A stretch of DNA of 64,000 bases from Crossiella cryophila (GTDB lineage Bacteria; Actinomycetota; Actinomycetes; Mycobacteriales; Pseudonocardiaceae). The notes beneath the pieces are model-generated. The model ran no database searches and was not told the DNA's origin. It worked only from the letters and a program-made list of their open reading frames with translations. The stretch lies in assembly GCF_014204915.1 (NCBI RefSeq), contig NZ_JACHMH010000001.1, positions 4,737,501 to 4,801,500 of the forward strand, given 5' to 3'. Below, in pieces: positions 1 to 15,324 of this stretch (position 1 is the stretch's first letter; each line of letters opens with the position of its first letter). A program made the translations under genes and the position numbers.

Positions 1-1
1 G

Positions 2-1843
2 ACCTTCCGGCACGATCTGATCCGGGAGGCGCTCTACAATCGCTTGCCCGGCCCGGTCCGGATGGCACTGCATCGCGAGGCCGCCTTCATCGTGCTCGGC
101 GAGGGCCGCTCGCCGGCCGACGCGGTCGAGCACCTGGTGCGCAGCGGGCACAAGGGCGACGCGCAGGCGGTGCTGATCCTGCGGCAGGCCGTCCGCGAGG
201 TCGCGCCGACCTCGCCGAACACCGCGGCCGACCTGATCCTGCGGATGCTGGACCTCATCGACGAACAACACGCCAGCAGGCCTCAGCTGGTCGGCGACGC
301 GGTGCGGCTGCTCGCACTGGCCGGGCGGGCCGCCGAGGCGATCCGGCTGGGCGAGTCCTCACTGCGCACGGTGGAGCGCACCGAGGACAAGGTCTCGCTG
401 CTGCTCGGGCTCTCCGAGGCGCTCTACGCCACGGGGCGCAACTCCAGCGTGGTCGAGTACACCAGCCGCGCGCTGGCCAGGGCGCGCACGCCCAGCCGGG
501 CTCGGGCCGAACTGCTGGCCATGCAGGCATACCTGCTCATCGACAGCGGGGATCCGCGCAGCGCGGACGCGGTGGCCGCGGAGGCGGTGGCCATCGGTGT
601 GCAGGCCGGGGAGTACGCGGCGGTGGTGTGCGGCAACAACGCGCGCAGCGTGGTGGCCAGGGTGCACGGGCAGCTGGACGTGGCGCTGACCTATGCCAGG
701 GAGGCGGTGCGGGTCGCGGACAAGGTCGGCGGCAGCTCCCGCAGCAGGCATCCGCGGCTGTGGCTGGCGGTGGCACTGACCGCCAGCGACCGGTTCGAGG
801 AGGCCGAGGCCGGGTTCGCCCGCGACCACCAGGACACCGAGGCGGCGGGCACCGCGCTGTCCCAGCCGCACTGGCACTACTACCGGGCCGAACTGCGGCT
901 GGCCCAGGGTCGCCTGGACGACGCCGCGGTGGAGGCCGAGGCCGGGGTGTTCGTGGCCGAGCAGCTGCGCGCCCAGCCCCTGGCCGTGCCGCTGCTGGCC
1001 ATGCTCGGGCTGATCTCGGTGTACCGGGACGACATGACCATGGCGCGCAGCTACCTCAAACAGGCCGACGGCCTGGTGGACGAGGGCGTCAGCGTGGTGC
1101 CGGAGGACCTGGCCTGGGCGGCGGCCTGCTTCCAGGACGCGGCCGGGCACCAGGAGGCCGCGCTGGAGATCCTGGACGAGCTGAGCGAGGCGCTGCCGGA
1201 ACGACTGCTGCTGTTCACCCGGCACCCGGCCGCCGGCGCGCGACTCATCCGGATGGCCCAGCAGACCGGTGATCACGCCCGCGCCGAACTGGTGGTGCGG
1301 GCCACCAGGAAACTGGCCGAGCGCAACCCGGAGGTGGCCTCGGCCGCCGGTGCCGCCGCACACGCCGAAGGGGTGCTGCGCAACGACATCGGCCTGCTGC
1401 GGGCGGCCGTCGGCGCCTACCGGGCGACCGGGCGGCAGCTCTCCCTGGCCGAGGGCCTGGAGGACCTGGCGCACGCCGAGGACGCGGCCGGGCACCGGGC
1501 CACCGCGGTCGGGCTCATGCAGGAGGCCGCGCAGTACTTCACCGCCTGCGGCGCCAAACGCGATCTGGCCAGGGTGCAGAAAGCCCTGCGGCGACTGGGT
1601 GTCCGGCGCCGGATCGCGGCGAAACCGGTCAAGGGCGGATCCGGCTGGAACAGTCTCACCCAGTCGGAGCTACGGGTGGTCCGGTTGGTGGCCGAGGGTT
1701 TCACCAACCGTGAGGTCGCGGGCAAGCTGTTCCTCTCACCGCACACAGTGGACAGTCACCTGCGGCACAGCTTCGCCAAGCTGGGCGTGACCAGCCGGGT
1801 CGAGCTGACCCGCAAGGCGATGTCGCACGACGAGTCCCGCTAG
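2..1843 (+). CDS. LuxR-family (LAL-type) transcriptional regulator, 5' end outside the window
   Basis: The reading frame is already open at base 2 and reads TFRHDLIREALY before the first in-window TTG at 44, so that TTG is internal. 'F-RHDLIREALY' is typical of the segment after the AAA/STAND ATPase module of large LuxR (MalT/LAL) regulators. A long helical TPR-like region follows, then a C-terminal LuxR HTH in the last ~60 residues (LTQSELRVVRLVAEGFTNRE ... LSPHTVDSHLRHSFAKLGV). The missing N-terminus should hold the Walker motifs. It sits at the edge of a nitrous-acid/aminohydroxybenzoate gene cluster and is the natural candidate for its activator, and for binding the inverted repeats at 1875, 9092, 9152 and 14984. 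That link is inferred. Family assignment is firm. Confidence 0.9.
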   Translation, partial: TFRHDLIREALYNRLPGPVRMALHREAAFIVLGEGRSPADAVEHLVRSGHKGDAQAVLILRQAVREVAPTSPNTAADLILRMLDLIDEQHASRPQLVGDAVRLLALAGRAAEAIRLGESSLRTVERTEDKVSLLLGLSEALYATGRNSSVVEYTSRALARARTPSRARAELLAMQAYLLIDSGDPRSADAVAAEAVAIGVQAGEYAAVVCGNNARSVVARVHGQLDVALTYAREAVRVADKVGGSSRSRHPRLWLAVALTASDRFEEAEAGFARDHQDTEAAGTALSQPHWHYYRAELRLAQGRLDDAAVEAEAGVFVAEQLRAQPLAVPLLAMLGLISVYRDDMTMARSYLKQADGLVDEGVSVVPEDLAWAAACFQDAAGHQEAALEILDELSEALPERLLLFTRHPAAGARLIRMAQQTGDHARAELVVRATRKLAERNPEVASAAGAAAHAEGVLRNDIGLLRAAVGAYRATGRQLSLAEGLEDLAHAEDAAGHRATAVGLMQEAAQYFTACGAKRDLARVQKALRRLGVRRRIAAKPVKGGSGWNSLTQSELRVVRLVAEGFTNREVAGKLFLSPHTVDSHLRHSFAKLGVTSRVELTRKAMSHDESR

Positions 1844-1864
1844 TCCATTGTGGACTGTGGGTCG

Positions 1865-1902
1865 CCACGGCAGGATCACGCGAACACGTGATGCTGCCGT
1901 GG
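1865..1902. promoter_or_regulatory. Extended inverted repeat, putative pathway operator site 1
   Basis: Two 16-bp arms (one mismatch) flank a 6-bp centre. The core is ATCACG (1875-1880), CGAACA, CGTGAT (1887-1892). No T-tract follows, so a simple terminator for the upstream regulator is less likely. The same core recurs in the other two promoter regions of the cluster. It lies about 70 bp ahead of the VOC-ligase-methyltransferase operon. Binding by the LuxR regulator is inferred. Confidence 0.6.
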
Positions 1903-1960
1903 CGGCCGCCGAGCACTCTGGGGTCGGTAAGTAGTGGTGTGACTCAGGGAGATTCGCCTT

Positions 1961-2323
1961 ATGAGCAACGCTGTCGGACCGAACTTCCTCACGCTCCAGG
2001 TTCGCGACCTTGAGCGCTCCAAGCGTTTCTACACCGAGCTGGTCGGCTTCACCCCCACCGAGTCCAAGGTGCCCACCGCGGTCGTGCTGGACACCGCGCC
2101 GATCAAGCTGGCGTTGCGGCAGAGCGCCATCGACCTGGACGCGGTCAGCGAACTCGGCTGGGGCGTGGTGCTCTGGATCAAGGCAGAGGACCCGGACAAA
2201 CTGGCCAAGGAGCTGGCGGCGGAGGGCGTGACCATCACCAAGCCCCCGTGTGACGGCTTCTGCGGCCGCGAGTTCCAGTTCAAGGACCCCGACGGCTACG
2301 AGCTGACGATCTACGAAGGCTGA
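1961..2323 (+). CDS. VOC (glyoxalase/bleomycin-resistance fold) protein
   Basis: A 120-residue single VOC module. The N-terminal half contains the typical VRDLERSKRFYTELVGF stretch, and the C-terminal half ends FKDPDGYELTIYEG, where the conserved Glu metal ligand sits. It is the first gene after the putative operator and is followed by a ligase and a methyltransferase on the same strand. VOC proteins in biosynthetic loci act as metal-dependent dioxygenases, isomerases, or self-resistance binding proteins. Sequestering a reactive diazo product is one possibility, but nothing in the sequence decides between these. An SD-like AGGGAGA lies just upstream of the ATG. Confidence 0.85.
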   Translation: MSNAVGPNFLTLQVRDLERSKRFYTELVGFTPTESKVPTAVVLDTAPIKLALRQSAIDLDAVSELGWGVVLWIKAEDPDKLAKELAAEGVTITKPPCDGFCGREFQFKDPDGYELTIYEG

Positions 2324-2442
2324 TCCCCCCAGAAGGCCGAACGATCGCAGCCTGTCCGCCGACCCGCCGCCGCGCGCTCACCCGCAACGCGGCGGGTCGG
2401 CCCCCCTTTCGTCGAGTTGGGTCCTGCCGGGAGACAACACAC

Positions 2443-4131
2443 ATGAGCGAGAGAAACGGCACCACGAGCTTCGACTTCAGACCTCTGGCCCGCATGCCGC
2501 TGCACGCCCGGCTCCAGCTCCTGCTGGATCGCGGCCTGGGCGTGGGCAACTTCCTCGACCGCGCCCGCCGGGTCAGCCCGGCGCCCGACCAGCCCTTCCT
2601 GCTCGCCCAGCGACGCACCGGGCACGGGATGTCGTTGCAGCGGTTGAGCCTCAACGACCTGACCACCATCCGCAACGCCTACGCCGCCTGGTACCACCAC
2701 GCCGGCGTGCGCAAGGGCGACCCGGTCGGCGTGCAGCTGGGCGAGGGCGTGGACTCCTTCCTGCACTTCCTCGCGGTCTCCTCGCTGGGCGCGATCCCGG
2801 CGCTGGTCAACGGCCGGATGGACCCGGCGATCGCCTCGGCCTACCTGGGCCGGATCGGCGCGGTCGGCGTGGTGGCCGACGAGGAACGCCTGGACGCGCT
2901 GAAGAACTGCGGCGAACTGCCAGCCGCCCTGCGCTTCGCGGTGGACTCCGCGGACCTGCCGACCAGTGGCGCCACCTCGCTGCCGGGGGTTTTCCCCTAC
3001 CCACACGGCGATGACGACCCGGTGATGCTGTGCCACACCTCCGGCACCACCGGCCCGCCCAAGTCCGCGATCTTCGCGCACCGCCAGTTCTTCCTCGGCA
3101 AGCGGCACCGGCTGTGGAGCTTCCCGCAGGCGGAGAAGAACCGGATGCTCTCCGCGCTGCCGCAGTCGCACTCGGCGGGTATCAGCTACCTGATGACCGC
3201 CACCCTGCTCGGCCTGCCCACACTGGTGATGGCCGATTCCAGCGGGGAGGCCGTGCACGAGGCGATGAAGCTGTTCCGACCGTCCATTGTGGTCGCGTTC
3301 CCGCAGACCTACGCCGAACTGGCCCAGCTGGACATCGATCGCCAGGCGGGCAGCCAGGTGCACACCTGGATCAACACCGGTGACTCCGCGCACGAGGCGC
3401 ACATCAAGGCGCTGATCCGGCACGGCAGGCGACCGGCCCGCGGCGGCGACAAACCCGGCTCCCGGTTCATCGACGGCCTGGGCTCCTCCGAGATGGGGAT
3501 GGCCTTGTTCCGCAAGGTGAGCGAGCCGGAGAGCACCGACTACGACCGCTGCGTGGGCACCCCGGTCAGCGTGGTGGAGAAGGCCACCGTGCTCGACGAG
3601 GACGGCCGCCAGCTCGGTCCGGGCCGGGTCGGACGGCTCGGCGTGCGCACCCCCACCAGGACCCCCGGGTACTGGAACAACTCCGAGCTGACCACCAAGT
3701 CCTCGCTGTCGGGCTACTGGCTCACCGGCGACGTGGTCTACAAGGACCGCAAGGGTCGCTTCTTCCACCTCGACCGCGTCCCGGACGTCATCCACACCAC
3801 CACCGGCCCGGTCTACAGCCTCCCCCTGGAGGAGGCGATCCTGTTGGGGTGCGAGCAGATCGCGGACTGCGCGGTGGTCGCGGTCGACGCGCCGGCCCCC
3901 GGCCGCGGCCACGTCCCCTTCGCCGCGATCAAGCTCAAGCCCGGCGCCGCCGAACCCGCGGACCTGTTGGCCGCCGTCAACACCGCGCTGACCGCCCGCG
4001 GACTGTCCACAGTGCACGGTGCCGTGCTGGCAACGGAACCGGCGGACTTCCCGACCGGCGCCACCGGCAAGGTGCTCAAGCGCCAGCTCCGCGAACGCTT
4101 CGCCACCGTGCTCTCCAGCCAGCCCAGCTGA
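2443..4131 (+). CDS. creM: AMP-forming acyl-CoA ligase-fold enzyme, candidate diazotase (CreM/AvaA6-like)
   Basis: ANL superfamily adenylating enzyme of 562 aa. The phosphate-binding loop CHTSGTTGPPK is at residues 197-207, the hinge-region YWLTGD follows near residue 430, and the C-terminal catalytic lysine is in PTGATGKVLK (Lys543). In isolation it would be called a fatty-acid-CoA ligase. Its setting beside CreD/CreE-like and 3-amino-4-hydroxybenzoate genes matches the ATP-dependent diazotases of cremeomycin (CreM) and avenalumic acid (AvaA6), which couple nitrite to an aromatic amine through an AMP-nitrite intermediate. That role is inferred from context; activating the aromatic carboxylate is the main alternative. 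It precedes the O-methyltransferase by 33 bp, so the two are probably co-transcribed. Confidence 0.7.
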   Translation: MSERNGTTSFDFRPLARMPLHARLQLLLDRGLGVGNFLDRARRVSPAPDQPFLLAQRRTGHGMSLQRLSLNDLTTIRNAYAAWYHHAGVRKGDPVGVQLGEGVDSFLHFLAVSSLGAIPALVNGRMDPAIASAYLGRIGAVGVVADEERLDALKNCGELPAALRFAVDSADLPTSGATSLPGVFPYPHGDDDPVMLCHTSGTTGPPKSAIFAHRQFFLGKRHRLWSFPQAEKNRMLSALPQSHSAGISYLMTATLLGLPTLVMADSSGEAVHEAMKLFRPSIVVAFPQTYAELAQLDIDRQAGSQVHTWINTGDSAHEAHIKALIRHGRRPARGGDKPGSRFIDGLGSSEMGMALFRKVSEPESTDYDRCVGTPVSVVEKATVLDEDGRQLGPGRVGRLGVRTPTRTPGYWNNSELTTKSSLSGYWLTGDVVYKDRKGRFFHLDRVPDVIHTTTGPVYSLPLEEAILLGCEQIADCAVVAVDAPAPGRGHVPFAAIKLKPGAAEPADLLAAVNTALTARGLSTVHGAVLATEPADFPTGATGKVLKRQLRERFATVLSSQPS

Positions 4132-4164
4132 CCCCACGCGACACCGAACCAAGGAAAGGGAACC

Positions 4165-5241
4165 ATGACCGACACAGTCTCCGCCGCTTCGGCTCACCGT
4201 CCCGGCGTGACGGCCGGGGTCTCCCCGCAGGACGGCGACGTGCCGGCCCCGGTGCGCATGTACGAGATGCTGTACAGCTCGCTGGTGAGCCAGCTGCTCA
4301 TCGCGGTCGCCGAACTCGGCGTGGCCGACGCCCTCGGCGACGAGGTGCGGCACATCGACGACCTGGCCGAGCGCACCGGCGCCCACCCCGGCGCGCTGTA
4401 CCGGGCGCTGCGCGCGCTGGCCAGCGTCGGGGTGTTCACCGAGGTCGAACCGCGCACCTTCGGCCTGACCCCCCTTGCCGCCACGCTGCGCGGCGATGTG
4501 CCGGGGTCCATGCGCGACCTGGCCAAGTACGTGGGCCTGAGCGAACGGCAGCGCTCCTTCGGCGCCCTGGTGCACAGTCTCCGCACCGGCCAGCCCAGCT
4601 TCGACCACGTGCACGGCACCGACTGGTGGACCTACTTCGCCGCGCACCCTGAGCTGTCCACGCTGTTCAACAACGCCATGGGCAACATGGCCCGGATGGT
4701 CAACGGCGCCACCCTGGACGCCTACGACCTCACCGACGTCAAGCACCTCATCGACGTCGGCGGCGGCCAGGGTCACCTGGTGGCCACCCTGCTGGCCCGC
4801 TACCCGGAGATGACCGCGGTGGTCTACGACCTCGCGCGGGTGGTGCCCGAGGCCGCGGCCACGGTGGCCAAGGCCGGGTTCGCCGACCGGGTGCAGTGCG
4901 TTGGCGGGGACTTCCTCAAGTCCGTGCCCGCCGGCGGTGACGCGTACGTGCTGTCCTGGACCATCCACGACTGGGCGGACAAGGACGCGATCACCATCCT
5001 GAGCAACGTCCGGGAGCAGATGAAGCCCGGCAGCAAGCTGATCATCATCGACGAGGTGCTGCCGGAGGGCGACGCGCCGCACTTCGGCAAGTTCGAGGAC
5101 ATCGTGATGCTGTCCCTGCTCACCGGGCACGTGCGCACCGAGGCGGAGTTCATCACGCTGTTCGAGAAGGCCGGGCTCAAGCACCTGGAGACCCGGCCCA
5201 CCTCCTCGCCGACGAGTGTGATCGTGGCGGTGCCCGCCTGA
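4165..5241 (+). CDS. SAM-dependent O-methyltransferase (plant-type OMT fold)
   Basis: 358 aa. It has an N-terminal dimerisation/winged-helix domain (MYEMLYSSLVSQLLIAVAEL) and a C-terminal Rossmann domain with SAM motif LIDVGGGQG at about residues 193-201. The catalytic-base His lies in WTIHDWADKDA, as in caffeate/hydroxyindole-type O-methyltransferases. It follows the ligase in one operon and is probably the tailoring methyltransferase of the aminohydroxybenzoate-derived product. Cremeomycin carries one O-methyl group installed by an OMT of its own cluster (CreN, as I recall). Substrate and order of steps are not shown by sequence. Confidence 0.87.
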   Translation: MTDTVSAASAHRPGVTAGVSPQDGDVPAPVRMYEMLYSSLVSQLLIAVAELGVADALGDEVRHIDDLAERTGAHPGALYRALRALASVGVFTEVEPRTFGLTPLAATLRGDVPGSMRDLAKYVGLSERQRSFGALVHSLRTGQPSFDHVHGTDWWTYFAAHPELSTLFNNAMGNMARMVNGATLDAYDLTDVKHLIDVGGGQGHLVATLLARYPEMTAVVYDLARVVPEAAATVAKAGFADRVQCVGGDFLKSVPAGGDAYVLSWTIHDWADKDAITILSNVREQMKPGSKLIIIDEVLPEGDAPHFGKFEDIVMLSLLTGHVRTEAEFITLFEKAGLKHLETRPTSSPTSVIVAVPA

Positions 5242-5265
5242 TCTGAGGTAATCGCGAGGTCCGAC

Positions 5266-5298
5266 GTGCGCCGGTTCCCTGGTGGGGGACCGGCGCAC
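5266..5298 (+). terminator. Stem-loop after the O-methyltransferase gene
   Basis: A GTGCGCCGGT...ACCGGCGCAC hairpin with CCC/GGG at the loop side, starting about 25 bp after the stop codon. It is a GC-rich actinomycete-type terminator with only a short T-containing tail (TTCGTTG). It separates the operon from the small secreted-protein gene. Confidence 0.65.
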
Positions 5299-5402
5299 TT
5301 CGTTGTGGCCTCGGGGTTTCAGATCCGCTTGAAACCGGTGGTCCCGCTGATCCGGCATCCCTAATCTCCGTGATCGACCCGACCGCGGAAGAAGAGGGAA
5401 AC

Positions 5403-5735: not shown

Positions 5736-5747
5736 CCCGCACACGGG

Positions 5748-5784
5748 ACCGGCCCCGCGATCGAGGGATCGCGGGGCCGGTTTT
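5748..5784. terminator. Perfect 15-bp hairpin with T-tract, bidirectional terminator
   Basis: Arms at 5748-5762 and 5767-5781 pair perfectly around a GAGG loop and are followed by TTTT. It lies between the convergent small secreted-protein gene and the GriH-like gene and can serve both. Confidence 0.9.
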
Positions 5785-5797
5785 CCGTTGTGCGGCT

Positions 5798-6901
5798 TTA
5801 CTTCTCCAGGCAGAACTCGTTGATCGGGTAACCCACGTGCCGGTCCTGGGTGGGCAGGTAGCCCAGCACCGTGTCACCCGGCCGCAGCTCGGTGCTGTTG
5901 AGCACCACGCCGCCGGGGCCGAGCACCCGCACGTGCCAGTCGTCCTGCAGGATCAGGTTCACCGTCTGGCCGTTGGGCGCCACCGCGTCGATGGAGATCA
6001 GCGGCCTGGTCTCGATCTTCACCCGGCCCACGGTGACCAACCTGGTCTGCCCCTTGATGTCCACCGCCATCACCTTGCTGCCTGCCTTCAGCTCGCTGAG
6101 GTAGTTGGTGCGGCTGTTGGCGGAGAGGGTGTAGGAGTGGATCGCGCCCGCGTTGACCCGGAACGGGCGGGTGGGCATGTACGGCAGCGGGTGGGTCTCG
6201 CTGACGCACAGGATCATGCCCTTGGAGTGCGAGCCGACCAGGATGCCCTCGTCCTCGCGGAAATAGGTGCAGGTGTCCACACAGGCCCGCTCGCCCATGC
6301 CGATGTGCGCGGTGGCGGTCACGGTCAGCTCGACCAGGTCCAGTTCCGCGGTCTCGGTCACCGCGGCCTGCTTGAGCGCCGTGGCGTCGCCGACACGCCG
6401 CGGCGCCATCAGCACACCGTCCGAACCCAGTTCCAGCACGCCGAAGATGATCTCGGCTTCCTCGACGTCCTGCGCGATGGTGATGATGCTGCCGGTCGAC
6501 TTGGCCGCCGCCGCGATCACGATTTCAAGGGGGATCTTGGTGGGGTCGCGGAAGAGCAGCACCGCCCAGCGGTCGTTGCGGGCCGCCTGGCAGGCGTCCT
6601 CCAGCGTGGGCGCGTCGATGATCTCCACGAACCGGCCGAACTCCACGTCGGGGTGACGCAGTGCCAGTTCGGCGGGCTCACCGTGGGCCACCGGGTCCAC
6701 GATGACCACATCGGCGCCGCCGAAGTCCTCCGGCAGCGGGCGGCCCTGCGGGAACAGGACCTTCTTCACCGTGGGGGGCAGGGTTTCCAGGTCCTCCGGG
6801 GTGGCGGCCACGATCCCGTCCACGCGCTGGTGGATGGCCTCCTCCAGGATCGCCGACCTCGCGTCGTCCGTCGCACGGACATCCAGCCAGCAGAGCTTCA
6901 T
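5798..6901 (-). CDS. griH: 3-amino-4-hydroxybenzoate synthase (GriH/CreH-like, DHQ synthase II family)
   Basis: 367 aa, the usual length of the archaeal-type 3-dehydroquinate synthase family to which GriH belongs. It starts MKLCWLDVRATDDA. The strongly conserved C-terminal half includes GSDGVLMAPRR, AHIGMGERACVDTC, EGILVGSHSKGM, RPFRVNAGAIHSY and NYLSELKAGSKV. GriH converts the seven-carbon amino-ketose phosphate made by GriI into 3,4-AHBA, the core of grixazone and of cremeomycin. It is the last gene of a three-gene leftward operon, 36 bp after the GriI-like gene. The presence of both enzymes together with an aspartokinase makes the 3,4-AHBA assignment much more likely than dehydroquinate synthesis. 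Confidence 0.93.
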   Translation of the reverse strand: MKLCWLDVRATDDARSAILEEAIHQRVDGIVAATPEDLETLPPTVKKVLFPQGRPLPEDFGGADVVIVDPVAHGEPAELALRHPDVEFGRFVEIIDAPTLEDACQAARNDRWAVLLFRDPTKIPLEIVIAAAAKSTGSIITIAQDVEEAEIIFGVLELGSDGVLMAPRRVGDATALKQAAVTETAELDLVELTVTATAHIGMGERACVDTCTYFREDEGILVGSHSKGMILCVSETHPLPYMPTRPFRVNAGAIHSYTLSANSRTNYLSELKAGSKVMAVDIKGQTRLVTVGRVKIETRPLISIDAVAPNGQTVNLILQDDWHVRVLGPGGVVLNSTELRPGDTVLGYLPTQDRHVGYPINEFCLEK

Positions 6902-6937
6902 GGTCTTGCTCCTCCAAGGGGTGGGGCGGGTGGATGG

Positions 6938-7741
6938 TCAGACCCGGCTGGGGACGAGCGCCCGCTCGTCCGCACCGGCGTGCACGAGTTCGGCGATCCG
7001 CCGGGCTCGTTTGCCCGGATCGGGCGCCTGGAAGATGTTGCGGCCCATGGCCAGGCCGGTCACGCCCGCACTCAGCAGAGTGTCCACATAGGACACAACA
7101 GCGTCGGTGCTGTCCAGTTGCGGGCCGCCGGCCACGATCAGCGGGATCGGGCAGCCGCGCACCACATCGGCCATCTCCGCCCGGGAACCGACGTAGGGCA
7201 CCTTGGCGATGTCCGCGCCCAGGTCCGCCGCGAGCGAGGCGGCGTGCGCGACCAGCGCCGGGTCCCTCGGGTTGGTCACCCTGGGGCCGCGCGGGTACAT
7301 CATCGCCAGCAGCGGCACGTTCCACCGGTCACAGGCGTCGGCGACCAGACCGAGGTCGGCGACCTGGCGGCGTTCGTCGGCCGAGCCGATGTTGACGTGC
7401 ACGCTCACCGCGTCCGCGCCCAGCCGCAGCACATCCTCCACAGTGGACACCAGGTACTTCGCGTCCGGGTCCGGCGCGTGCATGGTGCTGGCGGAGAGGT
7501 GCACGATCAGCGAGGTGCCGGTGAACACCCTGGCGTCCACGTGCCGCAGGCTGCCCTTGTGCAGCACCACGCCGTCGACCCCGTTGGCGGCCAGCTCGCC
7601 GATCAGCCAGGTGAGGTCGTTGCCGACGATCGGGCCGTCGGAGACCGAGTGATCCAGCGGCACCACGAACAGCCGCTCGTCACTGTGGTGGAACAACCTG
7701 CGGAAGCGCATCTGGGCGCCGAACGATCGGTTCGTAGACAC
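6938..7741 (-). CDS. griI: Class I aldolase forming the C7 precursor of 3,4-AHBA (GriI/CreI-like)
   Basis: 267 aa member of the DeoC/LacD-type family that includes archaeal ADH synthase. Visible hallmarks are VVPLDHSVSDGPI (residues 27-39), the Schiff-base lysine in ADIAKVPYVG (Lys180), YPRGPRV, VAGGP and GLAMGRNIFQ. GriI condenses aspartate semialdehyde with dihydroxyacetone phosphate to give the linear precursor that GriH cyclises. It starts at GTG with AAGAAGGGA upstream. It lies 31 bp downstream of the aspartokinase gene that would supply aspartyl phosphate. Confidence 0.93.
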   Translation of the reverse strand: MSTNRSFGAQMRFRRLFHHSDERLFVVPLDHSVSDGPIVGNDLTWLIGELAANGVDGVVLHKGSLRHVDARVFTGTSLIVHLSASTMHAPDPDAKYLVSTVEDVLRLGADAVSVHVNIGSADERRQVADLGLVADACDRWNVPLLAMMYPRGPRVTNPRDPALVAHAASLAADLGADIAKVPYVGSRAEMADVVRGCPIPLIVAGGPQLDSTDAVVSYVDTLLSAGVTGLAMGRNIFQAPDPGKRARRIAELVHAGADERALVPSRV

Positions 7742-7772: not shown

Positions 7773-9017
7773 CTAGGCGGGCATGGACTCGGCGTCGTCC
7801 CGGTCCAGCTCGAACTCGCGGTGCAGGGTGGTGACCGCCTCGGTGAGCCGGTCGGCCGGGATGATCACCGAGCTGCGCAGCTGGGTGGTCGCGCCCCAGC
7901 TCGGGGTGATGCCCGCGGCGGAGAGCGCCAGCAGCATCCGCACCGTGTACTCGGGGCGGTTGAGCAGGCCGGTGCCCACCACGGACAGCTTGCCGACCTG
8001 GTCATCCAGTTCGGTGACGCAGCCCAGTTCGGCGGCCAGTTGGGCCAGCAGGTCCTGGGCCACCGGCAGGTCCCTGCGGTGCAGGGCGAAACCCAGTCGC
8101 GGCTCGCTCTCGCCGGGGCCGGACCAGGAGACCAGGTCCACCGGGACCGACTTCTGTGCCAGCGCGTCGAAGACCACGGTGGCCAGGCCGGGGGCCGGGC
8201 GGGTGGCGCGGACCTGGGCCCACACCACCTCCCGGTCGTGGGTGACCGCGGTGACAAAACCCTGTGACTCCATGACCTGTTGACAGCTCCGTCCGAGAAT
8301 CGTGGTGCCTGCGGACTGGGTGTACGAACTGCGCACCTGGAGATCCATGCCGTGCACCGCGGCCAGTTCCACCGCCCGGGAATGCAGCACCTGCGCGCCG
8401 GCGAAGGCCATCTCGGTCATCACCCCGGCGTCGACGTGGCTGAGCACCCTCGCACCCGGCACGATGCGCGGATCGGCGGTGTAAACGCCGTCCACATCGG
8501 TGTAGATCTCGCAGCTGGCCGCGTCCAGTGCGGCCGCCAGCGCCACCGCCGTGGTGTCCGAACCGCCCCGGCCGAGGGTGATGATGTCGCCGTGCGTGTC
8601 CATGCCCTGGAAACCGGACACCACAACGACATTGCCATCGTCCAGATGCCGCAGCACCCGGCTGGTGTCGATGGCCGCGATGACCCCGGCGCCGTGCCTG
8701 CCATCAGCCAGGATGCCTGCCTGCGGACCGGTCAGGGACATCGCGGGCACGCCGATCTCGTGCAGGGCCATGGCCAGCAGCGCCGCGGACTGGTTCTCCC
8801 CGGTGGCCAGCAGCTGGTCGCTCTCCCGCGCCGATGGCGACGGGTTCAGCTCCAGTGCCTGCCGGATCAGCTCGTCGGTGGTGTCCCCGCGAGCGGAGAC
8901 CACCACCACCGTCGGCCGACCCGCGCGGTGCGTGTGCCGCACGATGCGCGCCACCCGGCGGATCATCTCGGGCGTCGCGACCGACGTCCCACCGTATTTC
9001 TGAACCGCTATGGTCAT
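7773..9017 (-). CDS. Aspartate kinase dedicated to the cluster
   Basis: 414 aa from the ATG at 9017. The frame stays open to 9116, but the kinase family begins at MTIAVQKYGGTSV, and GAGGGG sits six bases before this ATG. The amino-acid kinase domain has KYGGTSV, FQGMDTHGDIITLGRGGSD and EIYTDVDGVYTADPR, followed by two ACT domains. It makes aspartyl-4-phosphate, the first step to aspartate semialdehyde for the GriI reaction. No semialdehyde dehydrogenase is visible here, so that step would use the primary-metabolism enzyme. A pathway-specific aspartokinase is usually taken to relax lysine/threonine feedback control, though no residue here proves that. Confidence 0.92.
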   Translation of the reverse strand: MTIAVQKYGGTSVATPEMIRRVARIVRHTHRAGRPTVVVVSARGDTTDELIRQALELNPSPSARESDQLLATGENQSAALLAMALHEIGVPAMSLTGPQAGILADGRHGAGVIAAIDTSRVLRHLDDGNVVVVSGFQGMDTHGDIITLGRGGSDTTAVALAAALDAASCEIYTDVDGVYTADPRIVPGARVLSHVDAGVMTEMAFAGAQVLHSRAVELAAVHGMDLQVRSSYTQSAGTTILGRSCQQVMESQGFVTAVTHDREVVWAQVRATRPAPGLATVVFDALAQKSVPVDLVSWSGPGESEPRLGFALHRRDLPVAQDLLAQLAAELGCVTELDDQVGKLSVVGTGLLNRPEYTVRMLLALSAAGITPSWGATTQLRSSVIIPADRLTEAVTTLHREFELDRDDAESMPA

Positions 9018-9109: not shown

Positions 9110-9151
9110 GTTCCAAGGGCGGCTGCGGCGAGTGGGTGAAGCAGCCGCAGT

Positions 9152-9169: not shown

Positions 9170-9245
9170 GACATCACCGCCCGGCGCCGAGCACTCTTCT
9201 CCCCAGTCTGTCAGCGTCACGCGCGATCCACACCCAGGGAGAGTG

Positions 9246-11258
9246 ATGTCGTCGGTGGCTCCATTGTGGACAACGATCTGCGTCATCGGCGCGGGCCCGC
9301 GCGGCATCTCGGTACTCGAGCGGATCTGCGCGAACGCGGCCCGGCGACTGGACCGGCGGGTGCTGGTGCACCTGGTCGATCCGCACCTCGGCGACGGCGG
9401 CGAGGTGTGGCGCACCGGTCAGCCCAGCGAACTCCTGATGAACACGATCGCCTCCCAGGTGACCATGTTCACCGACGACACCGTGGACTGCGCGGGCCCG
9501 ATCGCGCCCGGTCCCAGCCTGTACGAGTGGGCGAAGTTCCTGCCCCTGATGGACTCCATCGACGTCTACCCGGCGCACGTGCGCAAGGAGGCGGGCGCGC
9601 TGGGGCCGGACTCCTATCCCTCCCGCGCCTTCTACGGCCACTACCTGAGCTGGGTGCTGCGCCGGGTGGTGCGCACCGCGCCGCGGCACGTCAGCGTGCG
9701 GCTGCACCGGGGCACCGCGATCGCACTGGACGGCACACCTGACGGCGGTCAGTGCGTGACCCTGGCCGACGGCTCGGTACTGTCCGAAATGGACACCGTG
9801 GTGCTCGCCCAGGGCCACGTCGGCATGCCGCACGGGGATGCCGAGTCGCGGCTGGCCGGCTTCGCCGCCGCGCACGGCCTCGGCTACCAGCCGCCGATCA
9901 ACCCGGCCGACGCCCCGCTGGAGCGGATCAAGGCCGGGGAGGCGGTGGCGCTGCGCGGGATGGGGCTGAACTTCTTCGACTACACCGCGCTGCTCACCGT
10001 GGTCCGCGGCGGCCGGTTCGTGCGCGAGGACGGCCGCCTGGTCTACCACCCATCGGGCCGGGAACCCTTGCTGTACGCGGGATCCCGGCGCGGCGTGCCC
10101 TATCACGCGCGCGGGGAGAACCAGAAGGGCGCCTCCGGGCGGCACGAGCCGTTCTTCCTGACCCAGCCGGTGATCGACGGGCTGCGGCTGCGGATGGATC
10201 GCGGCATGGACGTGGAGTTCCGGCGCGATGTGTGGCCGATGGTCTCCCGCGAGGTGGAGGCGGTCTACTACCACGCGCTGATCGCCGACCGAGGTGACCC
10301 GTTCGCCGCCGATGACTTCCTGCGCGAGTACCTGGCCCGCGATGTGCACGACCCGGCCCTGGAAGTGTTGCGGCGGCACGGGATCGGCCTGACCGAACGC
10401 TGGGACTGGGATCTGATCGCGCGTCCGTTCGGGGACCGCCGTTTCGCCGACCGCGCCGAGTTCCGCGCCTGGCTGCTGGAATACCTGCGCCGCGATTTCG
10501 CGGAAGCCTTGCGCGGCAACGTGCGTGGTCCGCTCAAGGCGGCCATGGACGTGCTGCGCGACCTGCGCAACGAGATCCGGCTGGTGGTCGACCACAGCGG
10601 GATCAGCGGCCGCTCCTACCGCGAGGAACTCCAGGCCTGGTACACCCCGCTCAACGCCTACCTGTCCATCGGCCCGCCCGCCAGCCGGATCGAGGAGCTG
10701 ATCGCGCTGATCGAGGCCGGGGTGCTGCACGTGCTCGGCCCCGGCATGCGGGTCGTGCCGGACCCGGCAGGCAAGGGATTCCTGGTGCGCGCCAGCGAGA
10801 TCCCCGGCTCGGACGTGCTGGTCACCACCCTGGTGGAGGCCCGGCTGCCCGAGGTCGACGTGCGCCGCAGCACCGATCCGCTGCTCCGGCACCTGTGGCG
10901 GACCGGCCAGTGCGGCCCGTACCGCATCCCGGACGGCACCGGCGGCCACTACGAGACCGGCGGCCTGGCCATCACCCGCCGTCCCTACCACCTCCTTGAC
11001 GCGACCGGACGGCCGAACCCGCGCCGGTTCGCCTTCGGTGTGCCCACCGAGGCAGTGCACTGGGTGACCGCGGCCGGCATCCGTCCGGGGGTCAACTCGG
11101 TGATTCTGAGTGACGCGGACGCGATCGCGCGGGCGTGCCTGGCGGTCAGCCGCCCGGGTCTGGGAAGCTCGCGGACGTACCTGAACCAGCACATTCCGCT
11201 GGCCTGGCTGCCCACCAGCGCCCTGCAGCGGAGCCGGACCGCACGGGGGACCGTTTGA
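9246..11258 (+). CDS. creE: Flavin-dependent L-aspartate N-monooxygenase, nitrosuccinate-forming (CreE-like)
   Basis: 670 aa. The N-terminal FAD-binding Rossmann motif CVIGAGPRGISVLERI has GAGPRG at residues 15-20, followed by a large FAD/NAD(P)-binding region (GYQPPINPADA, LRGMGLNFFDY, RPYHLLDATG, FGVPTEAVHW). CreE-type enzymes oxidise the amino group of aspartate in steps to nitrosuccinate using NADPH and O2. The overlap with the CreD-like lyase gene makes the pair diagnostic. The ATG at 9246 is chosen because family members start just before the Rossmann strand and AGGGAGAG lies immediately upstream; the open frame back to 9105 would run through operator site 3. It is transcribed divergently from the aspartokinase operon. 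Confidence 0.92.
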   Translation: MSSVAPLWTTICVIGAGPRGISVLERICANAARRLDRRVLVHLVDPHLGDGGEVWRTGQPSELLMNTIASQVTMFTDDTVDCAGPIAPGPSLYEWAKFLPLMDSIDVYPAHVRKEAGALGPDSYPSRAFYGHYLSWVLRRVVRTAPRHVSVRLHRGTAIALDGTPDGGQCVTLADGSVLSEMDTVVLAQGHVGMPHGDAESRLAGFAAAHGLGYQPPINPADAPLERIKAGEAVALRGMGLNFFDYTALLTVVRGGRFVREDGRLVYHPSGREPLLYAGSRRGVPYHARGENQKGASGRHEPFFLTQPVIDGLRLRMDRGMDVEFRRDVWPMVSREVEAVYYHALIADRGDPFAADDFLREYLARDVHDPALEVLRRHGIGLTERWDWDLIARPFGDRRFADRAEFRAWLLEYLRRDFAEALRGNVRGPLKAAMDVLRDLRNEIRLVVDHSGISGRSYREELQAWYTPLNAYLSIGPPASRIEELIALIEAGVLHVLGPGMRVVPDPAGKGFLVRASEIPGSDVLVTTLVEARLPEVDVRRSTDPLLRHLWRTGQCGPYRIPDGTGGHYETGGLAITRRPYHLLDATGRPNPRRFAFGVPTEAVHWVTAAGIRPGVNSVILSDADAIARACLAVSRPGLGSSRTYLNQHIPLAWLPTSALQRSRTARGTV

Positions 11259-12622
11259 CCAGCCACGCCACCGATTCCGGCCTGCTCGCCCCGGTGTGGG
11301 CGGGCACCGGCGCCGCCGAGGCCACCTCGGATCACGCCTGGGTGCGGGCCATGCTCGACGTCGAGGTCGCGCTGGCCCGCGCCCAGGCCAAGCTCGGCAT
11401 CATCCCGGCGGCGGCGGCCGAGCGCATCGCCGCGGCCGCCGACCCGGACCGGATCGACCTGGTCCAGCTGGCCGAGGCATCCCGCGGCGCGGCCAACCCG
11501 GTGGTGGTCTTCGTCCAGCTGTTCACCGCGCTGATCGAGCCGGCCGCGGCCGAGTACGTGCACCGGGGCAGCACCAGCCAGGACATCCTGGACTCGGCCA
11601 CCATGCTCCTGGCCGCCAGGGCGTTCCGGCGAGTCGAGGCCGACCTGACCAGGGCGGCCACCGCAGTGGCCGGGCTGGCCCGGGAGTACCGGGACACCCC
11701 GATGGCCGGGCGCACCCTGACCCAGCACGCGGTGCCGATCACCTTCGGGCTCAAGGCCGCGGGCTGGCTCACCCTGGTCCTGGACGCCAGGGACCGGGTC
11801 CGCCACCTGCTGGAGCGGGGTCTGCCCGCCCAGCTCGGCGGCGCGGCGGGCACCCTGTCCGCCTACGCCGAGTACGCCACCGCCGCCACCGGTCACCCGC
11901 ACACCCTGGACCTGCTGGCCGGCTTCAGCGCCCAACTCGGCCTGCCCGAACCGGTCCTGCCCTGGCACGCGGTGCGCACCCCGATCGCCGATCTGGGCGC
12001 CACCGCCGCCTTCGTCACCGGCGCCCTCGGCAAGATCGCCGTCGACGTGCAGGGCATGTCCCGCACCGAGGTCGGCGAGGTGGCCGAACCCAGCGCCGAG
12101 GGCCGCGGCCAGTCCTCCGCCATGCCGCAGAAGCGAAACCCGGTGCTGGCCACCCTGATCCTGGCCGCCGCCAGGCAGACCCCGGCCCTGTCCAGCATCC
12201 TCACCCAGTGCCTGATCTCCGAGGACGAACGCGCCGCCGGGGCCTGGCACGCCGAATGGCAACCCCTGCGGGAAGTCCTGCGCCTGACCATCGGCGCGGC
12301 GCACACCGCGGCGGAACTCGTTACGGGACTTGAGGTCTTCCCGGATCGCCTGCGCGCCAACCTGGCCCTGTCCGGCGGCACGATCGTCTCCGAACGGCTC
12401 AACGTGGCACTGGCCCCGGTGCTGGGCAAAGCCCCGGCCAAGAAGCTGCTCGCCCGGATCTCCTTGGCATCGGCGGCCACCGGCATCCCGTTCGGCGAAC
12501 TGCTGGCGGCCGCACCGGAACTGGCGGGCAAGCTGACCGACGTGGCCGAGCTGCTGGATCCGGCGCGATACCTTGGCGCGGCGGGGGACCTGGTCGACCG
12601 GGCCCTGGCCAGGGCCGACTGA
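11255..12622 (+). CDS. creD: Nitrosuccinate lyase, nitrite-releasing (CreD-like, fumarase/aspartase superfamily)
   Basis: 455 aa from the TTG at 11255, which overlaps the upstream stop by three bases and has GGGGGA upstream; no ATG or GTG lies nearby in frame. The superfamily signature loop QSSAMPQKRNP is at residues 286-296, with YVHRGSTSQDILDSAT and GRTLTQHAVP earlier, the layout of carboxymuconate cycloisomerase/adenylosuccinate-lyase-like members. CreD eliminates nitrous acid from nitrosuccinate, leaving fumarate. Translational coupling to CreE fits an unstable intermediate passed between the two enzymes. Confidence 0.92.
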   Translation: MTSHATDSGLLAPVWAGTGAAEATSDHAWVRAMLDVEVALARAQAKLGIIPAAAAERIAAAADPDRIDLVQLAEASRGAANPVVVFVQLFTALIEPAAAEYVHRGSTSQDILDSATMLLAARAFRRVEADLTRAATAVAGLAREYRDTPMAGRTLTQHAVPITFGLKAAGWLTLVLDARDRVRHLLERGLPAQLGGAAGTLSAYAEYATAATGHPHTLDLLAGFSAQLGLPEPVLPWHAVRTPIADLGATAAFVTGALGKIAVDVQGMSRTEVGEVAEPSAEGRGQSSAMPQKRNPVLATLILAAARQTPALSSILTQCLISEDERAAGAWHAEWQPLREVLRLTIGAAHTAAELVTGLEVFPDRLRANLALSGGTIVSERLNVALAPVLGKAPAKKLLARISLASAATGIPFGELLAAAPELAGKLTDVAELLDPARYLGAAGDLVDRALARAD

Positions 12623-12637
12623 GGCTACCGTGGTGGC

Positions 12638-13210
12638 ATGTACTGGGATCCGCTGCCGACCGTGGCCGCCTCGACGAACCAGCCGGTGGCCGGTGCGGAA
12701 GAGCTGCTGCTGTGGCCGCCGGAGTCCTACCTGCTGGGCAAGTGGGAACTGCGGGACTGGCGCAACGTGCCGGGCCCGTTCTACGGCGCGGAGACCGACT
12801 CCTGCTGGGCAGGCCGCCTGGTCGCACCCGACCACGTCGTCTACGAGGACGAGCGGTTCGGCGAGGTGGTGTTCCGGCAGCCGAGGGATGTCCAGGAGAC
12901 GCACCGCCTGCTGAGCGCGGCCTGGCAGGACCCGTTCTGCGGCTACGCCGCCGACGGCGACCAGCACTGGACCCTGGCGCTGATCCGGGAGTGGTGGGCG
13001 GAGCGGGCCCGGCTCGCGGCGTGGATCGAGGACCTTCAGCGGCGGTGGTCGGTCGAGGGGAACGAGGACGAGCAGGAGGCCGCGACCGGGTTGCGCGCCT
13101 ACGCGGGTTACCTCGCCGACGGGGTCGAGGGCTGTCTACGCGAGTACGGGTTCTGGCTTGAGCATCGGCGATCGGCCCGGCCAGGGGAAACACTGCCCGA
13201 CCTCGGCTAG
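12638..13210 (+). CDS. Hypothetical protein, acidic, Trp-rich
   Basis: 190 aa, 15 bp after the lyase gene on the same strand, so probably in its operon. It is rich in Trp and acidic residues (LLLWPPESYLLGKWELRDW, WTLALIREWWAERARL), with a helical middle. It has no signal peptide, no membrane segment and no cofactor motif that I recognise. I cannot assign a family or a role in the pathway. Confidence 0.75.
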   Translation: MYWDPLPTVAASTNQPVAGAEELLLWPPESYLLGKWELRDWRNVPGPFYGAETDSCWAGRLVAPDHVVYEDERFGEVVFRQPRDVQETHRLLSAAWQDPFCGYAADGDQHWTLALIREWWAERARLAAWIEDLQRRWSVEGNEDEQEAATGLRAYAGYLADGVEGCLREYGFWLEHRRSARPGETLPDLG

Positions 13211-13220
13211 CCGCCGGTTG

Positions 13221-13251
13221 CCCGGCGTGGCAACGGAAACGCCACGCCGGG
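13221..13251. terminator. 11-bp stem terminator between convergent genes
   Basis: CCCGGCGTGGC (13221-13231) pairs perfectly with GCCACGCCGGG (13241-13251) around a 9-base loop. It is located between the convergent hypothetical and oxidase genes and closes the CreE-CreD unit. Confidence 0.75.
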
Positions 13252-13260
13252 ACCGATGGT

Positions 13261-14880
13261 TCAGCGGGTGCCGGGCAGCCGGATCGACTGCGCGTGCCGG
13301 AACACGTTGCGCGGGTCCCACTTGGCCTTGGCCAGCTGCAGCCGCCGGTAGCTGCCCTTGAAGTACAGCTCGGTCCACGGCACCGTCGAGCGGTTCCAGG
13401 CCGGGTCGCTGATGTCGATGTCGGCGTAGTTGATGAAGCAGCCGTCGGTGACCTCGTTGAGCACCGGCACGCCGCCGGTGTCGGCGTAGACCTGCTGGTA
13501 GAACTCCTGGTGCCACTGGAGGTTCCGCTTGTCGTCGGCGGCCTCGGCCCAGGCGGTGCCCCACAGCAGCTTCAGCACCGAGTCGCGGTGCGGTTCGGCG
13601 GTGGCCTCGGCGGGCACGGTGTTGATCTTACCGCCGTAGGAGGCGATGGAGACCGCGAAACCGAGGTGGGTGTAGGTGGTCGCGGTCAGCGCCTTGTACA
13701 GCGCGGCGATCTGCGGGTCGGTGAATCCCTTGCGGTGGTAGCTGGACTTGTACTTGTACCGGTCGGTCGGGGTGTGCACCCACAGGCCCTGCCAGCCGGT
13801 GGACTGCAGCCAGGGCAGCTTGCGCTTGTCGGTGACCTGCGGGGTGACCCCGACGCCCTCGCCGATCGCGGCCACGAACGCGTCCAGCAGCCGCTCGGAA
13901 TCCGGTGCGGTGGCGTCCATCTGCACGATGAGGTGGTTGGGCGCGGTCGCTTTGGTGCTCAGTTCGAGGCGGGAGAACAGCTTGGCGTACGGGCTGTTCA
14001 CCGCGCTGTTGCGTTCGTGCCACTGGCCGAAGTTGCGCAGCAGCCGGGTGAAGCGCGGTTCGGTCAGGTTGTCCCACGGCCATTCCACCCGGTGGATCCA
14101 CACCTCGGCGGGCGGCGCGGGCAGCAGCTTGGTCGGGTCGCTGCCGGTGGCGCCGGGATCGCGGAACCAGAACCGCGTGACCACGCCGAAACTGCCGCCG
14201 CCGCCACCGGTGTGCGCCCACCACAGCTCGCGGTTGGGGTCGTTGGCCTCCCTGGTCGCGATGACCGCCTTGGCCACGCCCGCCTGGTCCACCACCACGA
14301 CCTCGACCGCCTGCACGTAGTCCACGATCAGGCCGTGCTGGCGGCCGAGCTGGCCGTAACCGCCACCGGTGACGTGCCCGCCGACGCCCACGGTGTGGCA
14401 GGACCCGCCGGGCAGGGTGACACCCCAGCGGCGCAACAGGGTGCCGTAGACATCGCCCAGCAGCGCGCCCGCCTCGACCTCGAAGGCGCCGCGCGCGGTG
14501 TCGAAGCGCACCGCGTCCATACAGCTCATGTCGATGATGACCTGGACCTCGGGGTGGTCGACGAAGCCCTCGTAGCAGTGCCCGCCGGAGCGCACCGAGA
14601 GCCGCTTGCCGGTCCGCACCGCCTCGCCGACGGCGTTCACCACCTCGGTGGTGGTCACCGGCAGCCGCACCACATCGGGATTGGACACCCAGCGCATGTT
14701 CTGCCCTCGGGAGAGCGCCGCGTGCCGGTGATCGCCACGCGGCACGGTGAGCGCGTTGGCCGGCCGGGCCGGGCCCTCGTCCGCGCCCGCGATCGTGGCG
14801 GCGAACGGCGGCACGACCAGAGCGGTGCCCCCCAGCACCGCCGCCCTGCTGAGCAGGGTTCGACGGGATAACCCGTTCAT
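13261..14880 (-). CDS. Tat-exported berberine-bridge-type FAD oxidase
   Basis: 539 aa. The N-terminus MNGLSRRTLLSRAAVLGGTA is a twin-arginine signal. The PCMH-type FAD domain follows, with RSGGHCYEG (His101, the usual 8-alpha-histidyl-FAD site) and LPGGSCHTVGVGGH (Cys161, the usual 6-S-cysteinyl site), so a bicovalent flavin is expected. A C-terminal BBE segment ends WDPRNVFRHAQSI. Such enzymes oxidise alcohols, sugars or phenols with O2. Its promoter carries the cluster's operator motif (14984), which argues it belongs to the pathway. An extracytoplasmic oxidase would act late, on exported product. Its substrate is unknown. Confidence 0.9.
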   Translation of the reverse strand: MNGLSRRTLLSRAAVLGGTALVVPPFAATIAGADEGPARPANALTVPRGDHRHAALSRGQNMRWVSNPDVVRLPVTTTEVVNAVGEAVRTGKRLSVRSGGHCYEGFVDHPEVQVIIDMSCMDAVRFDTARGAFEVEAGALLGDVYGTLLRRWGVTLPGGSCHTVGVGGHVTGGGYGQLGRQHGLIVDYVQAVEVVVVDQAGVAKAVIATREANDPNRELWWAHTGGGGGSFGVVTRFWFRDPGATGSDPTKLLPAPPAEVWIHRVEWPWDNLTEPRFTRLLRNFGQWHERNSAVNSPYAKLFSRLELSTKATAPNHLIVQMDATAPDSERLLDAFVAAIGEGVGVTPQVTDKRKLPWLQSTGWQGLWVHTPTDRYKYKSSYHRKGFTDPQIAALYKALTATTYTHLGFAVSIASYGGKINTVPAEATAEPHRDSVLKLLWGTAWAEAADDKRNLQWHQEFYQQVYADTGGVPVLNEVTDGCFINYADIDISDPAWNRSTVPWTELYFKGSYRRLQLAKAKWDPRNVFRHAQSIRLPGTR

Positions 14881-14983
14881 CAGGTGAACCTCCAGGAGTC
14901 AGACGACGGCCCGGAGCACGCAGCACCCCGCCGCGGCCCACCCCGGGAACGGCTCCAGGATGTGGCGGGAATCCACTGCGGAC

Positions 14984-15001
14984 ACCACGTGTTCGCGTGA
15001 T
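14984..15001. promoter_or_regulatory. Putative pathway operator site 4
   Basis: ACCACG-TGTTCG-CGTGAT, the reverse complement of the site 1 core with one changed base. A further half-site (ATCCCG on the minus strand, 15006-15011) adjoins it. It is about 105 bp upstream of the oxidase start. The rest of the 14881-15324 gap holds the promoters of the two divergent genes and one GTCCACAGTGGAC word at 15144; I see no other gene there. Confidence 0.55.
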
Positions 15002-15324
15002 CTTCTCGGGATTCACCGGCAGAAAACCCGGCCGGGCGGCAGATGTGGCTTCGTCACAGGAGATTCTGGCGGCGACGCGTAGTTGACCGTACTCGTACTG
15101 TTACCTGCCCGCAACGGTTTCCGTTGCCCGAAAGGGCAGCACCGTCCACAGTGGACGATGAGTGTGCGCACGCTGGATGAGCGGGCGATGACCCAGGGTG
15201 GCGATCAGTCCGGCCGGTCGATGATCCGATGGGCGGCGGTCCGGCTGGCAGGTTGCGGCCAGCGAACGCCGCGGTGTGCCGGTCCGTGTCAGCGTGTACG
15301 CGGACGGTGAAGGGGGTGCGGCGA

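What the first reader, a model, noticed from the sequence alone, without database searches (positions are those of the whole stretch)
1..15020. Nitrous-acid plus 3-amino-4-hydroxybenzoate cluster: likely diazo natural product locus
CreE-like and CreD-like genes (nitrite from aspartate), a GriH/GriI/aspartokinase operon (3,4-AHBA), a ligase-fold enzyme that could be the diazotase, an O-methyltransferase and a candidate regulator lie together in 15 kb. Each half is known separately and together from cremeomycin. Aspartate feeds both halves: nitrogen for nitrite and carbon via aspartate semialdehyde. The arrangement and the extra VOC, secreted and BBE-oxidase genes do not match cremeomycin as I recall it, so the product may be new.
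Basis: partly seen in the sequence, partly recalled or inferred. Interest (0 to 1): 0.92.

Follow-up and report, generated by a model that had tools for sequence, protein, structure and literature searches.

The report
Crossiella relative of crexazone gene cluster
This stretch of an actinobacterium's chromosome holds most of a gene cluster that should make nitrous acid and an aromatic amine and join them in a diazo-forming step; it appears to be a new member of a cluster family published in 2024, and its final product is unknown.

Summary
Window 1-14,880 encodes CreE/CreD-type nitrous acid enzymes (16 of 16 checked CreD positions kept), a 3,4-AHBA operon with its own aspartokinase, a diazotase-type ligase, an O-methyltransferase, a LuxR-type regulator, a VOC protein and a TamL-like oxidase. 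The window cuts the cluster: six further genes and the start of the regulator gene lie upstream in the same genome. Thirteen genomes (11 Pseudonocardiaceae, one presumed Streptomyces, Marinactinospora) carry most of the set, in different orders. One has 17 genes whose order fits the printed order of the crx cluster of Streptomyces sp. CS057, which makes crexazones and gave no detected diazo product. So this is most likely a Crossiella crx-type cluster, not a new class and not cremeomycin; CS057 sequences could not be compared. The 'secreted' gene and a 190-aa gene occur only in the two Crossiella clusters. New here: ten of 13 clusters also carry a relative of AvaA7/CmaA7, enzymes that replace a diazo group by hydride; both Crossiella genomes and the presumed Streptomyces lack it. 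A testable prediction is that Crossiella keeps the diazo group. No reaction or product was shown.

The parts
1..1843 (+). 3' part of a LAL-type LuxR regulator gene (AAA_16 + GerE); the gene begins upstream at about -967. Six further cluster genes lie upstream of the window: DAO oxidase -5750..-4632, NmrA-type SDR -4657..-3767, cupin -3702..-3205, TetR -3139..-2579 (-), SDR -2422..-1682, SMR transporter about -1562..-1245
   Evidence: Pfam; regulator in 13 of 13 clusters at the laxer 37% threshold
1961..2323 (+). VOC-fold protein without the FosA metal ligands (crxF position); binding or self-protection protein by inference
   Evidence: Pfam; alignment to FosA (ligand positions recalled); F9, C97, C101 invariant in 12 sequences; 12 of 13 clusters
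2443..4131 (+). ANL-superfamily ligase of the CreM/AvaA6/CmaA6/Tri17 type (crxM position)
   Evidence: 13 of 13 clusters
4165..5241 (+). SAM-dependent methyltransferase of the O-methyltransferase family (crxN position)
   Evidence: 13 of 13 clusters
5798..6901 (-). GriH/BagC-type 3,4-AHBA synthase; only copy in the genome at E 1e-10
   Evidence: (BagC_FevH E 1.3e-208, 692 of 750 bits); 13 of 13 clusters
6938..7711 (-). GriI/BagB-type aldolase for 3,4-AHBA
   Evidence: 381 of 500 bits; 13 of 13 clusters
7773..9017 (-). cluster aspartokinase (crxK position)
   Evidence: 13 of 13 clusters
9246..11258 (+). CreE-type L-aspartate N-hydroxylase / nitrosuccinate synthase
   Evidence: 12 of 13 clusters
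11255..12622 (+). CreD-type nitrosuccinate lyase; probable start TTG 11255 overlaps the stop of the previous gene
   Evidence: 9 of 13 clusters; three more genomes have a 69% copy elsewhere
13261..14880 (-). BBE/TamL-type oxidase; H101 and C161, aligned to the covalent-flavin residues of TamL (recalled), are invariant (crxA3 position)
   Evidence: 9 sequences; 10 of 13 clusters

Best explanation
It is the Crossiella member of the crx family of clusters. Inferred from homology: aspartokinase, aldolase and GriH-type synthase make 3-amino-4-hydroxybenzoate; the CreE/CreD pair makes nitrous acid from a second aspartate; the CreM-type ligase activates nitrite with ATP and diazotises the aminophenol (or a derivative) to an o-quinone diazide or diazonium. 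The methyltransferase and the DAO, NmrA, BBE and SDR redox enzymes then tailor it, under a LAL regulator and a TetR repressor, with an SMR exporter and a metal-less VOC protein for self-protection. Shown here: gene identity, conserved residues, family membership by content and order, real limits. Not shown: any reaction, any product.
For: The 17-gene order of locus G888 fits the crx order pieced together from the construct descriptions and orf numbers in PMC11429834. Eight genes occur in 13 of 13 genomes and two more in 12 of 13, although order and strand differ between genera. The ligases of 12 family rows form one clade, support 100/99. Checked residues of CreD and CreE are kept. ANL motifs of the ligase, including E350, are invariant in the 6 rows aligned. 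In CS057, deletions of crxD, crxE, crxM and crxA1 each removed some or all crexazones.
Against: No CS057 sequence was available, so the crx match rests on printed order, stated domains and gene names, not on alignment; for A2, B, A3, K, F and orf26 I saw no stated function. The paper calls orf25 an MFS transporter; an SMR gene sits in that slot here. The crxB slot is empty in Crossiella. Deletion of crxC, the cupin, did not change production. NCBIfam scores are below curated cut-offs for the ligase (461.6 of 975), lyase (599.6 of 650), GriH-type (692 of 750) and GriI-type (381 of 500) proteins. No diazo compound was found from crx. The AlphaFold model of the ligase was poor (pLDDT 52.6) and gave no support.
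Confidence: 0.78

Rival explanations
1. Cryptic diazo step: as the crx authors propose, the diazo enzymes serve an oxidation of the aminophenol to an o-quinoneimine, and the end products are N-methylated phenoxazinones and aminoquinones (crexazones, texazone) without N-N bonds.
For: Published knockouts in CS057. The DAO gene and the methyltransferase are in 13 of 13 clusters, the BBE gene in 10 of 13.
Against: The authors note that a light-sensitive diazo product could have been missed. Loss of crxD or crxE also removed 3-acetamido-AHBA, which on their own account needs only N-acetylation of 3,4-AHBA, so the mutants are hard to read.
Confidence: 0.35
2. Diazotisation-dependent deamination: the amine is diazotised and then replaced by hydride, as in avenalumic and p-coumaric acid pathways, so the product has lost the nitrogen.
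For: A relative of the denitrification enzymes AvaA7/CmaA7 lies in 10 of 13 clusters. It is 29-36% identical (64-100 bits) to the A7-like protein of L195. A profile of the 10 proteins scores the six A7-like proteins at 77-124 bits and the next protein in the gene set at 37. None of the 10 and none of the 6 shows the SDR Tyr-Lys pair in the aligned segment.
Against: Absent from both Crossiella genomes and from G888. The match to the second A7-like protein, L193, is weaker (37-54 bits). 3 of 6 comparison SDRs also lack the Tyr-Lys pair. No deaminated product is reported in the crx text I read. The A7 proteins are identified by cluster position, not by comparison with AvaA7 itself.
Confidence: 0.15
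3. It is a cremeomycin cluster or makes cremeomycin.
For: Shares CreE, CreD, CreM-type, methyltransferase and 3,4-AHBA enzymes by homology.
Against: Cremeomycin's precursor is 3-amino-2-hydroxy-4-methoxybenzoate (PMC11705231, passage), which needs an extra ring oxygen; no PF01494 aromatic hydroxylase was found among the cluster genes scanned. Hydroxylases elsewhere in the genome were not searched for. A cluster of another type (L184) has two such hydroxylases, and seven clusters of that type have a CreD 66-69% identical to S. cremeus CreD, against 61% here.
Confidence: 0.05
4. A chance neighbourhood of two unrelated gene sets.
For: The pieces lie on both strands with gaps.
Against: The core recurs in 13 genomes with different order; the six flanking genes tested occur only in the two Crossiella genomes.
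Confidence: 0.01

Closest known systems
crx cluster, Streptomyces sp. CS057 (crexazones; PMC11429834: abstract and sections, passages)
   Same: DAO oxidase, cupin, CreD, CreE, 3,4-AHBA genes, methyltransferase, CreM-type ligase, LuxR and TetR regulators in one cluster; order fits that of the relative G888
   Different: Crossiella has no gene in the crxB slot, an SMR rather than an MFS gene, and a different order (DAO-NmrA-cupin-TetR-SDR-SMR-LAL ahead of VOC-ligase-methyltransferase). CS057 sequences not compared
cremeomycin cluster (cre)
   Same: Nitrous acid pair, CreM-type ligase, 3,4-AHBA route, methyltransferase
   Different: No ring hydroxylase found in the cluster here; extra DAO, NmrA, BBE, VOC and SMR genes as far as I recall the cre cluster, whose papers were not held
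ava and cma clusters (avenalumic, p-coumaric acid; PMC10777205, sections)
   Same: 3,4-AHBA enzymes, CreE/CreD, diazotase; an A7-like reductase in 10 of the 13 relatives
   Different: No ketosynthase, chain length factor or carrier proteins; no A7-like gene in Crossiella
Tri17 of triacsin biosynthesis (PDB 9BQ0, 8TF7; PMC11705231, passages)
   Same: Same ligase family, 302 bits
   Different: Acts on a hydrazone in its pathway

Membership tests
crx-type cluster | Gene set and order of orf11-orf27 | tested here: met
   Printed order against G888, and homology of window genes to G888 genes. Indirect: CS057 sequence not held, and six of the 17 genes have no function stated in the text read
crx-type cluster | crxB slot and MFS transporter orf25 | tested here: inconclusive
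   Crossiella has no gene in the crxB slot; an SMR gene stands in the orf25 slot. Neither was tested by deletion in the text read
crx-type cluster | Makes crexazones | not testable with these tools
   No culture data
Aspartate-nitrosuccinate (ANS) pathway | CreE-type hydroxylase with conserved flavin and substrate residues | tested here: met
   4 of 4 residues checked kept (roles from passages); tree
Aspartate-nitrosuccinate (ANS) pathway | CreD-type lyase with SSxMPxKRNP loop and Arg341 | tested here: met
   NCBIfam 599.6 bits with the short start, cut-off 650
ATP-dependent diazotase (CreM/AvaA6/CmaA6/Tri17) | Closer to N-N forming ligases than to acyl-CoA ligases; ANL motifs kept | tested here: met
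   383/340/302 bits against 81 (9xb8 not identified, 8ztz identified by inference); tree; motifs. Below the NCBIfam AvaA6 cut-off
ATP-dependent diazotase (CreM/AvaA6/CmaA6/Tri17) | Diazotisation activity | not testable with these tools
   Needs enzyme assay
3,4-AHBA synthase pair (GriH/GriI) | DHQS II-like synthase and DhnA-type aldolase pair | tested here: met
   BagC_FevH E 1.3e-208 and BagB_FevI E 2.7e-114, both below the exception-model cut-offs
Cremeomycin cluster | Enzyme for the extra ring oxygen in the cluster | tested here: not met
   No PF01494-type hydroxylase among the scanned cluster genes; rest of the genome not searched
ava/cma cluster | Type II PKS (KS, CLF, ACPs) and A7 reductase | tested here: not met
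   No PKS domain among the cluster genes scanned; A7-like gene absent from the genome above general SDR level

The most novel reading that the evidence does not exclude
Crossiella has kept the diazo-forming core but lacks the AvaA7/CmaA7-like reductase that 10 of 13 related clusters carry, so its pathway stops at, and exports, a methylated o-quinone diazide (or arylhydrazine) built on 3,4-AHBA, a product not described for crx or cremeomycin. In the other genera the same core would be a deamination or reduction pathway, which would explain why these diazo genes can give no diazo product.
Probability: 0.2. Interest if true: 0.65.

Novelty: new member of a known kind. Interest (0 to 1): 0.45.

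Why it matters
The crx cluster is a puzzle in print: it needs diazo-forming genes yet gave no detected diazo compound. A family of 13 clusters from several genera, some with and some without a likely diazo-removing enzyme, gives natural variants with which to find out what the diazo step is for. It also shows this gene set outside Streptomyces.

Tried and rejected
Taking the window's own limits as the cluster's: rejected, six more genes upstream recur with it. Counting the secreted gene (5403-5735) and the 190-aa gene (12638-13210) as core genes: rejected, 2 of 13 each; a homologue of the first (68%) also stands at the site in Crossiella G188, which has no match to the ligase at E 1e-100. Reading the extra NmrA gene of Crossiella S99.2 beside the DAO gene as crxB: rejected, a gene of the same kind stands at that site in G188. 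The NmrA gene g12 as an AvaA7 homologue: rejected, the match to the A7-like proteins is a 24-29 residue N-terminal stretch, 17 bits by profile. Structure prediction of the ligase: failed (pLDDT 52.6 with 6 sequences), so no fold search was run. More presumed Streptomyces members: 1 of 392 and 1 of 395 largely overlapping genomes, both G888. Ten downstream genes scanned gave no further cluster candidate; no tRNA in L011. Covalent-flavin residues of TamL, FosA metal ligands and the general layout of the cre cluster are recalled.

Full report
What is there. I called genes in the window and 20 kb upstream in the same complete 10.06-Mb genome and scanned them with Pfam, NCBIfam and the PDB. The CreE-like protein is 57.7% identical over 593 residues to the L-aspartate N-hydroxylase of PDB 8cp2 and keeps W51, N62, N413 and V571 (roles from passages of PMC10404684). 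The CreD-like protein keeps 16 of 16 positions checked against ScCreD (roles of most of them from passages of PMC13411527). Its ATG at 11351 is probably too late as a start; TTG 11255 overlaps the preceding stop. The 3,4-AHBA synthase has no second copy in the genome at E 1e-10.

The ligase. Its three best groups in the PDB score 383, 340 and 302 bits and the next 81. 8tf7/9bq0 is Tri17 (review PMC11705231, passages). 8ztz is 87% identical to the ligase of G247, which sits in a cluster with the cma gene set, so it is most likely CmaA6 or a close relative (inference). 9xb8 I could not identify. In a tree of 75 rows the 12 family rows form one clade with support 100/99. Dropped before the tree: three rows repeating or overlapping others (L147, L164, L173), and all sequences with a stop in the aligned stretch, among them that of Crossiella S99.2, or covering under 480 residues. 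CreM itself was not available.

Limits and relatives. The ligase query found close orthologues (E below 1e-230) in 11 of 390 genomes of the family and 1 of 392 of a genus I presume to be Streptomyces, and Marinactinospora (E 7.6e-221) in a class sample of 394. Named relatives are Crossiella sp. S99.2, Saccharothrix deserti, Actinokineospora globicatena, Saccharopolyspora shandongensis and S. elongata, and Marinactinospora thermotolerans. I read the surroundings in all 13 genomes. Present in 13 of 13: DAO oxidase, NmrA-type SDR, LAL regulator, ligase, methyltransferase, GriH-type, GriI-type, aspartokinase. In 12 of 13: VOC, CreE. In 10 of 13: cupin, TetR, SDR, SMR, BBE. In 9 of 13: CreD. The three Actinokineospora genomes, which lack the 10-of-13 genes in the stretch read, have a CreD (69%) elsewhere; G058 has no close CreE or CreD (best matches 1.3e-91 and 44%). 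In 2 of 13: the secreted gene, the 190-aa gene and the six flanking genes tested. The threshold was 44% identity (37% for the regulator), chosen by me. The DAO gene of Marinactinospora and some others were seen only in part, at the edge of a stretch.

The Crossiella site. Two Crossiella genomes without a ligase match (G187, G188) keep both flanks, with breakpoints near window -6719 and 16961, and about 12 kb of other DNA between them. In G188 that DNA still holds a copy of the SDR (85%) and of the secreted gene (68%) in the same order. This looks more like loss of an older cluster in G188 than recent gain here, but I did not test it further.

Comparison with what is known. The construct descriptions of PMC11429834 (passages) and its orf numbers (sections) give the crx order as A1, A2, B, C, A3, D, E, K, I, H, N, M, F, R1, orf25, orf26, R2. 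Reading G888 from its DAO gene gives DAO, NmrA, a DsbA-like gene, cupin, BBE, CreD, CreE, aspartokinase, I, H, methyltransferase, ligase, VOC, LAL, SMR, SDR, TetR (its BBE gene falls into two pieces in my gene calls). The text states a function or domain for eleven of the 17: A1 (DAO), C (cupin), D, E, I, H, N, M, R1 (LuxR), orf25 (MFS) and R2 (TetR). Ten agree; orf25 does not, as an SMR gene stands there. For A2, B, A3, K, F and orf26 I saw names only. I take this as the same cluster type. The paper reports crexazones 1-3 without a diazo group; all were lost in crxA1, crxD and crxE mutants, CRX2 and CRX3 in the crxM mutant, and nothing changed in the crxC mutant. My searches of the held library for crexazone or texazone, Crossiella with gene cluster, cremeomycin and diazotase showed no title or abstract start describing the Crossiella cluster. 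The Crossiella genome paper PMC9415966, whose strain Cross-2 has the accession of S99.2, has no hit for diazo, cremeomycin or grixazone (passages). Most subscription papers are not held, and the crx supplement could not be read.

The A7-like gene. A gene of 280-300 aa, beside or near the NmrA gene, in 10 of 13 clusters is an extended SDR in the one scanned. The ten are 29-36% identical, 64-100 bits, to the A7-like reductase of the cma-type cluster L195 and weaker (37-54 bits) to that of L193. A profile of the ten scores six A7-like proteins at 77-124 bits and the next protein of the gene set at 37. In whole genomes the other best hits of one member reach 39-41 bits (another score scale). AvaA7 and CmaA7 replace a diazo group by hydride (PMC10777205, sections). 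The gene is missing from both Crossiella genomes and from G888. Against a simple story: G888, and so perhaps CS057, also lacks it, and CS057 yielded no diazo compound; there the crxB slot is more likely the DsbA-like gene (inference).

Mechanism. Steps one to three (3,4-AHBA, nitrous acid, diazotisation) follow from the named enzyme families. Which substrate the ligase takes, where the methyl group goes, and what the DAO, BBE, NmrA and SDR enzymes do are open. The BBE-type protein is nearest to TamL and AknOx, alcohol oxidases as I recall, and keeps their two covalent-flavin positions. The DAO protein is nearest to sarcosine oxidase and, more weakly, NikD. The VOC protein lacks the FosA metal ligands and has two invariant cysteines, so I lean to a binding or protective role.

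Verdict. A real and conserved cluster, ordinary in that its family was most likely published in 2024, useful because the family has natural variants that bear on an open question.

Noticed in passing
L179/L180, L181, L182, L183, L184, L068, L069, L191, L192, L196: Ten clusters of a second type have a diazotase-like ligase and methyltransferase (10 of 10), CreE (9), CreD (8), BBE (7), GriH-type (6) and a 550-620 aa family (9) that in L184 is PF01494 ring hydroxylase, twice. L184 also has cupin, MFS, SARP, sigma factor and an Ada/alkylguanine-DNA methyltransferase gene, which suggests a DNA-alkylating product. Seven of their CreDs are 66-69% identical to S. cremeus CreD, one (L191) 57%.
   Followed up: partly
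G058 (L145, L146): A crx-type cluster without a close CreE or CreD in the genome; it would need nitrite from elsewhere.
   Followed up: partly
L213 (G188): Cluster-free Crossiella site that keeps the SDR and the secreted gene in place, with other genes between them that look like a FAD monooxygenase, TetR and LysR (judged from first residues only, no family scan).
   Followed up: partly
G744, G1056, G1141, G1082, G854, G015, G014, G355, G344, G501: Sister clade of the family's ligase without 3,4-AHBA genes in the stretches read, and with CreE/CreD there only in G744; substrate unknown.
   Followed up: no
window 12638-13210: 190-aa protein without a Pfam or NCBIfam match, found only in the two Crossiella clusters, 80% identical between them, less than its neighbours.
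   Followed up: no
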